Source: Oscillospiraceae bacterium
GTDB lineage: Bacteria > Bacillota > Clostridia > Oscillospirales > CAG-272
Length of the DNA stretch: 34,345 nt
Direction: 5' to 3'
NCBI GenBank assembly: GCA_015064795.1
Contig: SVRO01000005.1
Span: forward strand, 1-34,345
The translations under genes and the position numbers were made by a program. Below the pieces are notes generated by a model. The model was not told where the DNA came from and ran no database searches. It saw nothing but the letters and a program-made list of their open reading frames with translations. Positions 960-11,589 of the stretch are shown here, piece after piece. The number at the start of each line of letters is the position of its first letter. Position 1 is the first letter of the stretch.

Positions 960-1098
960 TCACCTCCCATTGTGAAAATAAAAAAATCTTTCTTCCGCAA
1001 AGCATAGCTGCGCGAAGAAAGACCGAAATTTCATTCAAAGTCGCTCCTCGGCAGGAAAGCAATGCTTTTACGGAAACCTGCTGTCTTTGGATAACAGC
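960..1098 (-). ncRNA. L10 leader (ribosomal protein autoregulatory RNA) with attenuator
   Basis: The transcribed leader of rplJ contains a perfect hairpin CCTGCTGTT...AACAGCAGG-type stem at 1077-1101 with the loop sequence typical of L10 leaders. A purine-rich internal-loop region follows at about 1024-1060 (CCGAGGAGCGAC and GAATGAAAT), where L10(L12)4 would bind. The leader ends in an intrinsic terminator (987-1022, U-tract 980-986) just before the rplJ ribosome binding site. Seen: the hairpins, their order and the promoter. Known: L10 leaders mediate feedback by L10-L12. Inferred: here control is by transcription attenuation. The exact 5' end is estimated from the promoter. Confidence 0.8.
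980..1022 (-). terminator. Attenuator terminator in the rplJ leader
   Basis: On the minus strand a TCTTTCTTCGCGCA arm pairs with TGCGGAAGAAAGA and is followed by seven T residues (980-986). It lies between the promoter and the rplJ ribosome binding site, so it can only act as an attenuator of the L10-L12 transcript. Confidence 0.75.
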
Positions 1099-1102
1099 AG
1101 GT

Positions 1103-1131
1103 ATTATATCACACTTTCCGTATGTTGTCAA
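1103..1131 (-). promoter_or_regulatory. rplJ-rplL promoter
   Basis: Consensus sigma-A promoter reading leftward: -35 TTGACA at 1126-1131, 17-bp spacer, -10 TATAAT at 1103-1108. Transcription should start near 1096, at the head of the L10 leader. Confidence 0.88.
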
Positions 1132-4317: not shown

Positions 4318-4400
4318 TGGTGCGGGTGACAGGGGTCGAACCTGCACGAATGAACATAAGATCCTAAATCTTACGCGTCTGCCAATTCCGCCACACCCGC
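4318..4400 (-). tRNA. tRNA-Leu(UAG), CCA encoded
   Basis: Reading leftward, the acceptor arms GCGGGTG (4394-4400) and CACCCGC pair, with discriminator A and an encoded CCA (4318-4320). The D-arm starts GGCGGAATTGGCAGAC, as in bacterial leucine tRNAs. The anticodon stem TAAGA/TCTTA encloses the loop TTTAGGA, giving anticodon UAG (reads CUA and other CUN codons). A class II variable arm of about 11 nt precedes the T-arm with TTCGACC in the loop. The length including CCA is 83 nt, slightly short for Leu because of the small variable arm. No strong promoter of its own is visible, so it may be read from the asd promoter. Confidence 0.95.
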
Positions 4401-11240: not shown

Positions 11241-11299
11241 CACCCAATATATGAACGGGCTGTTACATTATAAAAAAATAAATTTTGATTTGTCGGGAA

Positions 11300-11351
11300 G
11301 ACGATGTGGGTCACCGCCCCACACCCCGCCAGCCTTTTGAAAAAGGCTGGG
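11300..11351. repeat. Tandem inverted repeats in the yqhQ-parE gap
   Basis: Two adjacent hairpins. The first is TGTGGG...CCCACA near 11305-11323. The second is a perfect 10-bp stem CCAGCCTTTT/AAAAGGCTGG with loop GA (11329-11350). Neither is next to a gene end. The gap 11241-11593 contains no coding sequence I can support. Confidence 0.6.
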
Positions 11352-11388
11352 CGAAAACTTTTCTCGCATGGGGTTGCATAAACTTCAC

Positions 11389-11455
11389 GTCATTTTGAGC
11401 CGCGTGGCTCGCGGCATCAATGTTCTTCTCACAAGGTGAGAAGAACCAAAATGAC
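11389..11455. repeat. Palindromic element with three-way-junction fold (MITE/REP-like)
   Basis: Outer arms GTCATTTTG (11389-11397) and CAAAATGAC (11447-11455) pair perfectly. Between them are two further perfect hairpins: GCCGCG/CGCGGC with loop TGGCT (11399-11415), and an 11-bp stem GTTCTTCTCAC/GTGAGAAGAAC with loop AAG (11422-11446). Together they form a compact three-way junction of 67 nt. The outer arm resembles the widespread 'GTCATTCTGAG' type of interspersed repeat, so a non-coding mobile or REP-like element is the best guess. Only one copy is in this window. Confidence 0.6.
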
Positions 11456-11524
11456 TCAGGAAACTCTTACAATATTGCTTTTGCAGACTTTTTAGTAAAA
11501 ATTTTAAGAAAAGTTTTTGAGGGT

Positions 11525-11556
11525 TGTAGGGAACTTTTTTCAAAAAGTTCCCTACA
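11525..11556. repeat. Perfect 15-bp inverted repeat
   Basis: TGTAGGGAACTTTTT (11525-11539) pairs with its exact complement (11542-11556) around a TC loop. It lies in an A/T-rich stretch of near-repeats of AAAAGTTTTT. It has no U-tract outside the stem and lies downstream of the parE terminator, so it looks like part of an interspersed repeat rather than a terminator. Confidence 0.6.
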
Positions 11557-11589
11557 CGTTTTCTCCGATAAACTCCAATTTGTTGAGAT

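What the first reader, a model, noticed from the sequence alone, without database searches (positions are those of the whole stretch)
11389..11455. 67-nt palindromic element that folds as a three-way junction
Three perfect stems (9, 6 and 11 bp) are nested so that the outer arms close a junction bearing two hairpins. Almost every base is paired, on either strand. It lies in a gene-free gap, is not followed by a U-tract, and the outer arm resembles the GTCATT(C/T)TGAG type of interspersed repeat found in several bacterial phyla. It could be a non-autonomous mobile element, a REP-like hairpin excised by a single-strand transposase, or a structured RNA.
Basis: partly seen in the sequence, partly recalled or inferred. 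Interest (0 to 1): 0.5.

Follow-up and report, generated by a model that had tools for sequence, protein, structure and literature searches.

The report
MITE-like repeat of nested hairpins
The hairpin cluster is the middle of a ~300-bp piece of protein-less DNA that has spread to roughly a hundred places between genes in one uncultured gut bacterium, with related elements bursting in a few relatives; it looks like a new family of small mobile elements whose mover is still unknown.

Summary
The palindrome is real: stems of 9, 6 and 11 bp at exactly 11389-11455 (z -6.4 to -7.3). It is only the core of a 302-bp interspersed repeat (11280-11581) bounded by imperfect terminal inverted repeats of two kinds, E1 AAATTGATGTTTRTMGG and E2 AAATTTTGATTTRTMGG. 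The 1.38-Mb draft genome holds ~205-224 such ends (0-10 for control patterns), about 100 elements. All 38 complete copies checked carry one E1 and one E2 end. The interior is a mosaic of hairpin modules in either orientation. The core has three types with three- or four-way junctions; the window copy is the common core minus 47 nt between GCCGCG repeats. Paired columns covary. Across 118 genomes of the family the end frame AAATT-nnn-RTTTRTMGG is amplified in only ~8, each with its own nnn triplet(s); sister species of three carriers hold almost none. Most compared sites in sister genomes lack the element. Copies are intergenic. No target-duplication signal or autonomous partner was found; Y1 transposase is missing from four of seven tested carriers, DDE_Tnp_1 from six. 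Best reading: a new MITE/BOX/SMR-like non-autonomous mobile family moved by an unidentified enzyme. Not a REP/RAYT element, not a known Rfam RNA.

The parts
11280..11581 (+). Complete element in the window (302 bp; common full-length form ~350 bp), intergenic
   Evidence: Similarity to other copies starts and stops at these ends; flanks unrelated
11280..11296 (+). Terminal inverted repeat E2, AAATTTTGATTTGTCGG
   Evidence: Exact match to the end pattern; ~205-224 such ends in G000 vs 0-10 for the reversed control pattern
11565..11581 (-). Terminal inverted repeat E1 (AAATTGGAGTTTATCGG on the - strand; family form AAATTGATGTTTATCGG)
   Evidence: Read; all 38 complete copies checked carry one E1 and one E2
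11305..11323 (+). Hairpin H1 (TGTGGG...CCCACA); exchangeable module in the family
   Evidence: DNA fold of the element; H1 loop variants go with the end type
11329..11352 (+). Hairpin H2 (CCAGCCTTTTGAAAAAGGCTGG)
11354..11364 (+). Left half of inner closing stem AAAACTTTTCT, pairing with AGAAAAGTTTT at 11507-11517
11507..11517 (+). Right half of inner closing stem
11389..11455 (+). Core three-way junction (the finding): stem 11389-11397/11447-11455, shortened arm 1 11399-11415, arm 2 11422-11446
   Evidence: covariation in copies
11399..11404 (+). Site of the 47-nt deletion of arm 1: most copies carry two GCCGCG repeats with ~41 nt between them here, the window copy only one
   Evidence: alignment A1; only the window copy and the copy in L009 are short; CM score 70.9 bits vs 140-150 for full type-A cores
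11525..11556 (+). Hairpin H3 (TGTAGGGAACTTTTTTCAAAAAGTTCCCTACA), terminator-like

Best explanation
A non-autonomous, MITE-like mobile element. A shell of two short terminal inverted repeats (in this genus two unlike ends, E1 and E2) encloses a cargo that codes for nothing and is almost wholly palindromic. Copies were dispersed into intergenic DNA, most likely by an enzyme acting in trans on the two ends; the enzyme is not identified. Hairpin modules inside are lost, swapped and inverted by repeat-mediated events, which would explain the many cores and the shortened core in the window. Shown: copy number, element boundaries, unlike ends, mosaic interior, patchy amplification, absence at most compared sites of sister species, intergenic placement, covariation. 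Inferred: movement by a trans-acting enzyme; selfish rather than host function; template switching or recombination as the source of mosaicism.
For: ~205-224 ends in G000 against 0-10 for the control pattern; ends at the same two positions in copies with unrelated flanks and in the sister species G001, whose matches start and stop at the same element coordinates. Complete copies always pair E1 with E2: 38/38, and 18/18 in the unselected 302-kb sample. In that sample 22 complete elements lie between genes, 8 convergent / 6 tandem / 4 divergent / 4 unresolved against 51/126/57 of all gene pairs. High copy number in few of 118 family genomes with lineage-specific triplets, sister species nearly free: G132 122 vs G003 1 and G086 1; G048 70 vs G109 1; G097 35 vs G019 2. 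Two G000 sites lack the element in G001; none of the five G109 stretches orthologous to G048 element sites contains such an end. Interior modular, both orientations (25 forward, 10 reverse for type A), H1 variants linked to end type. 99.5% of paired cells form standard pairs, five pairs with double changes, 0/500 shuffles as high in covariation score.
Against: No target-site duplication signal of 3 bp or more at the boundaries among 62 flank pairs. No autonomous copy with the same ends among listed end pairs in G000, G132 and G048; Y1_Tnp and DDE_Tnp_1 were not found in most carriers. Empty sites come from species too diverged to show an exact junction. At one gene boundary both G000 and G001 hold an element, in opposite orientation, which could mean a preferred or kept site.
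Confidence: 0.75

Rival explanations
1. A REP/BIME-type element mobilised as single-stranded DNA by a tyrosine (Y1) transposase (RAYT, IS200/IS605, or a PATE).
For: Hairpin-rich, intergenic, no target duplication; E1 and E2 are imperfectly complementary, as ends read as single strands can be; the core begins with CGTC, the tag of one REP super-family (PMC3733652).
Against: Y1_Tnp not found in G000, G001, G132 or G048, all high-copy carriers (the last two 95-96% complete); found in non-carrier G003. True terminal inverted repeats, which PATEs lack by definition (PMC3119063). 300-440 bp instead of 20-40 bp; the core is closed by GTC/GAC pairing, without an unpaired tag and CCA tail.
Confidence: 0.08
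2. A host-beneficial structured RNA or bidirectional terminator/insulator that became repeated.
For: Compensatory changes, strong folding (z -6 to -10), excess between convergent genes, a terminator-like H3, related elements near the same gene in G000 and G048.
Against: No Rfam match; interior orientation and sequence vary freely; near absence from sister species; four of 18 resolved copies lie between divergent genes. DNA hairpins can keep complementarity without RNA function.
Confidence: 0.12
3. A sub-case of the best explanation, more specific: a classic MITE derived from an insertion sequence by internal deletion and mobilised by that insertion sequence's DDE transposase.
For: Terminal inverted repeats, size under 500 bp, intergenic, high copy number; fits the description in PMC10969869.
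Against: No target duplication, no parent element seen, DDE_Tnp_1 not found in G000, G001, G067, G132, G048 or G098; interior is hairpins, with no sign of insertion-sequence remnants. Other DDE families (rve, IS256, IS110, IS66, ISL3, IS1595, IS630) were not tested.
Confidence: 0.35
4. A chance palindrome, single copy.
For: None.
Against: 40 scored relatives of the core in the same genome, ~100 elements, z -6.4.
Confidence: 0.01

Closest known systems
SMR, small mobile repeats of Haloquadratum walsbyi (PMC3119063)
   Same: Terminal inverted repeats not matched to a known transposon, no target duplication, too short to code, mover enigmatic
   Different: SMRs are described as highly uniform within a type (commonly >95% identity); here the interior is a mosaic of hairpins and the ends are of two kinds in this genus
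BOX elements of Streptococcus pneumoniae (PMC3049150)
   Same: Modular, structured, MITE-like, ~125 copies, variable length (67-637 bp), over-represented between convergent genes
   Different: BOX has target duplications and a proposed insertion-sequence partner (ISSpn2); here neither was found, and a three- or four-way junction core sits inside a hairpin shell
MITEs in general (review PMC10969869)
   Same: Under 500 bp, terminal inverted repeats, intergenic, high copy, non-coding
   Different: No target duplication detected, no parent insertion sequence found, interior built of G+C-rich hairpins
CGTC-tagged REPs (PMC3733652)
   Same: Core starts with CGTC followed by AT; that family also has no dedicated transposase, and some of its dimers sit inside larger palindromes
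   Different: Not 8-9-bp stems with 4-5-nt loops and CCA tails; part of a 300-440-bp element with terminal repeats

Membership tests
MITE | Terminal inverted repeats, length under ~500 bp, too short to encode a transposase | tested here: met
   Ends E1/E2; 245-440 bp typical, one 508 bp with nested insertions
MITE | Flanking target-site duplication | tested here: not met
   No clear excess of matching flanks of 3 bp or more at the boundaries in 62 flank pairs; old copies may have lost it
MITE | Ends match an autonomous insertion sequence or transposase | tested here: inconclusive
   No long end pair seen; only PF01797 and PF01609 searched; drafts incomplete
SMR (Haloquadratum) | Terminal inverted repeats, no target duplication, non-coding | tested here: met
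SMR (Haloquadratum) | Terminal repeats unrelated to any known transposon | not testable with these tools
   No insertion-sequence end library on hand
PATE / IS200-IS605 | No terminal inverted repeats; near-terminal palindromes | tested here: not met
   Terminal inverted repeats present
PATE / IS200-IS605 | Y1 transposase available in the host genome | tested here: not met
   No PF01797 match in G000, G001, G132, G048; G000 and G001 are only 78% and 66% complete
REP (GTAG/CGTC) | 20-40-bp palindrome with unpaired GTAG or CGTC foot | tested here: not met
   Unit is 302-440 bp; GTC of CGTC is paired with GAC
Known structured RNA (Rfam 15) | Match to a curated covariance model | tested here: not met
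BOX | boxA/boxB/boxC modules | not tested
   No BOX model was available as a query

The most novel reading that the evidence does not exclude
A distinct class of small mobile DNA in which the ends form a fixed frame (AAATT-nnn-RTTTRTMGG) whose central triplet differs by lineage because it co-evolves with an undescribed recombinase, and in which any palindromic hairpin can serve as cargo, so that unrelated hairpin repeats are captured and spread by the same shell without target duplication.
Probability: 0.15. Interest if true: 0.75.

Novelty: new variant of a known kind. Interest (0 to 1): 0.45.

Why it matters
Roughly 100 copies in a 1.4-Mb draft is about 2-3% of the genome and helps explain why assemblies of these gut Clostridia break. 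The carriers give natural contrasts (three genera with a loaded and a near-empty species) that make the missing mobilising enzyme findable by simple gene-content comparison. A shell with interchangeable hairpin cargo is an unusual arrangement for a MITE-like element and may explain how unrelated hairpin repeats come to be shared among gut Firmicutes.

Tried and rejected
Rfam scan of the window and of five loci: nothing relevant. Target-duplication statistics over k 2-10 and offsets -6 to +6: the signal at the natural boundary is a 2-bp match in 13 of 62 against 6.2 expected, judged too weak. Search for an autonomous copy: the one 2.6-kb candidate pair in G132 is two separate short elements. 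Y1_Tnp and DDE_Tnp_1 as the mover. DNA-level comparison of the window locus with G001: no orthologous genes found in that 66%-complete draft; gyrB/parE relatives in the family lack the DUF1385 neighbour, so no empty-site test exists for this very copy. Phage, plasmid and viral collections: no match. Papers: nothing printing GTCATTCTGAG as a repeat, nothing on such elements in Clostridia.

Full report
OBSERVATION. The sequence at 11389-11455 contains exactly the three stems described: 9 bp (11389-11397/11447-11455), 6 bp (11399-11404/11410-11415) and 11 bp (11422-11432/11436-11446). The minimum-free-energy fold is that three-way junction, -36.3 kcal/mol, better than all 200 dinucleotide shuffles (z -6.4 on 86 nt; -7.3 on 70 nt). 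It lies between a DUF1385 gene and a gyrB/parE-type gene, both on the minus strand.

THE REAL UNIT. A search of the window's own genome (1.38 Mb, 105 contigs, 78% complete) found 40 scored core relatives. Aligning them with flanks showed that similarity runs far beyond the 67-mer, from 11280 to 11581 in the window and over ~350 bp in most copies, and then stops sharply. Both ends are inverted repeats: E2 AAATTTTGATTTRTMGG and E1 AAATTGATGTTTRTMGG. A pattern for the two finds 224 places with up to 2 mismatches (10 for the reversed control) and 205 with up to one (control 0), so about 100 elements. In the sister species G001 (same genus) the matches start and stop at the same element coordinates, and many of its contigs end inside an element.

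ANATOMY. From outside in: end repeat; hairpins H1 and H2 on one side, H3 on the other; an 11-bp closing stem AAAACTTTTCT/AGAAAAGTTTT; then a core closed by GTCATTTTG/CAAAATGAC. As single-stranded DNA the window element folds at -71.6 kcal/mol, z -9.0. Three core types were seen: type A (GTCATTTTGAGCCGCG...), a three-way junction, and types B and C, four-way junctions. Most type-A copies have a long first arm; the window copy and the one in L009 lack 47 nt between two GCCGCG repeats, as expected of a repeat-mediated deletion.

COVARIATION. In 47 type-A cores, 99.5% of paired cells form standard pairs, five pairs have changes on both sides, and no shuffle of 500 reaches the covariation score. 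In G001 the first arm has quite different sequence yet folds into the same form. This shows that pairing is kept. It does not by itself show an RNA function, since DNA hairpins can be corrected against themselves (inference).

MOSAIC. Among complete copies the type-A interior occurs in both orientations relative to the ends (25 and 10). H1 comes in several sequences, and its two loop variants of the GTGGGGC type go with the end type: the CTC/CCC variant only beside E1, the GTT variant only beside E2. All 38 complete copies with ends within one mismatch carry one E1 and one E2; none has two of a kind; the same holds for 18 of 18 in unselected stretches. This polarity is a feature of the window's genus: in G048 both ends read AAATTAGGATTTRTMGG.

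DISTRIBUTION. A covariance model of the core finds matches only in G000 and G001, none below E 0.1 in the G048 stretches or in 73 named relatives. The shell is wider. With the frame AAATTnnnRTTTRTMGG, 118 genomes of the same family give 168 hits in G000, 60 in G001, 70 in G048, 121 in G067, 122 in G132, 35 in G097, 20 in G098 and 11 in G020, and mostly 0-3, never above 6, elsewhere. Carriers have their own middle triplet(s): GAT/TTG (G000), TGG/GGG (G132, G067), AGG (G048), CCG (G097). Sister species in three of these genera have almost none (G003 and G086; G109; G019). Elements of G132 and G048, and some in public records (JAGAPH010000013.1, SVTJ01000015.1), have this shell around quite different, still palindromic, interiors. 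The neighbours by DUF1385 are animal-gut Clostridia/Oscillospiraceae drafts.

SITES. In 302 kb of G000, 22 complete elements lie between genes: 8 convergent, 6 tandem, 4 divergent, 4 unresolved, against 51/126/57 for all gene pairs by a crude ORF caller. At orthologous sites in G001, two G000 elements are absent, one site has a degenerate related end at a contig start, and one has an element in the opposite orientation. None of the five G109 stretches orthologous to G048 element sites contains such an end. These species are too diverged to read the insertion junction.

MECHANISM. No target duplication of 3 bp or more was found at the boundaries. Y1_Tnp (PF01797) was not found in G000, G001, G132 or G048, which argues against REP/RAYT and IS200/IS605 mobilisation; DDE_Tnp_1 (PF01609) was found among the tested carriers only in G020. 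No long copy with the same ends was seen. The most likely mechanism remains movement in trans by an unidentified enzyme on the two ends, as inferred for SMRs and MITEs. Probability of a mobile non-autonomous element 0.75; about half of that for a classic DDE-type mover.

COMPARISON. The nearest described kinds are Haloquadratum SMRs (terminal repeats, no duplication, enigmatic mover; PMC3119063), pneumococcal BOX (modular and structured; PMC3049150) and MITEs in general (PMC10969869). It fails tested features of REPs and PATEs, and it fails the target-duplication feature of MITEs, so it is called MITE-like and not filed as a MITE. No paper found in the library describes it.

LIMITS. Drafts are incomplete and break at these repeats; copy numbers are lower bounds. 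Only two transposase families were searched. Gene calls in the context count are simple ORFs. No expression data exist here.

Noticed in passing
L083, L016, L032, L041, L042, L009; L264:13600-14180: A second hairpin element (CGAGTTTGCTTCGC..RACCTCGGTTAACAAATTGG...CCAATTTGTTAC) sits inside the first, replacing the loop of hairpin H3 or part of arm 2; hairpin loops may be its insertion site.
   Followed up: partly
L264:13635-14143 and L292:1-270: At the same gene boundary G000 and G001 both hold an element, but with the interior in opposite orientation.
   Followed up: partly
L293:6850-7286, L295:13617-14134, L296:12898-13365 (G048): Composite elements in which a second shell end lies inside a first, as if two elements were joined.
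   Followed up: no
L289:1560-1787 versus L264:5044-5399: Unrelated elements of the superfamily lie upstream of the same orthologous gene in G048 and G000.
   Followed up: partly
L284:1101-1619 (G020): Short protein with a weak Y1_Tnp match and no element end in the fetched flanks.
   Followed up: no
window 972-1108 and 4321-4400: Rfam matches to an L10 leader and a tRNA, both on the minus strand.
   Followed up: no
G000, G001, G132 contigs: Many draft contigs end 50-250 bp inside an element, so the repeat limits assembly of these genomes.
   Followed up: partly
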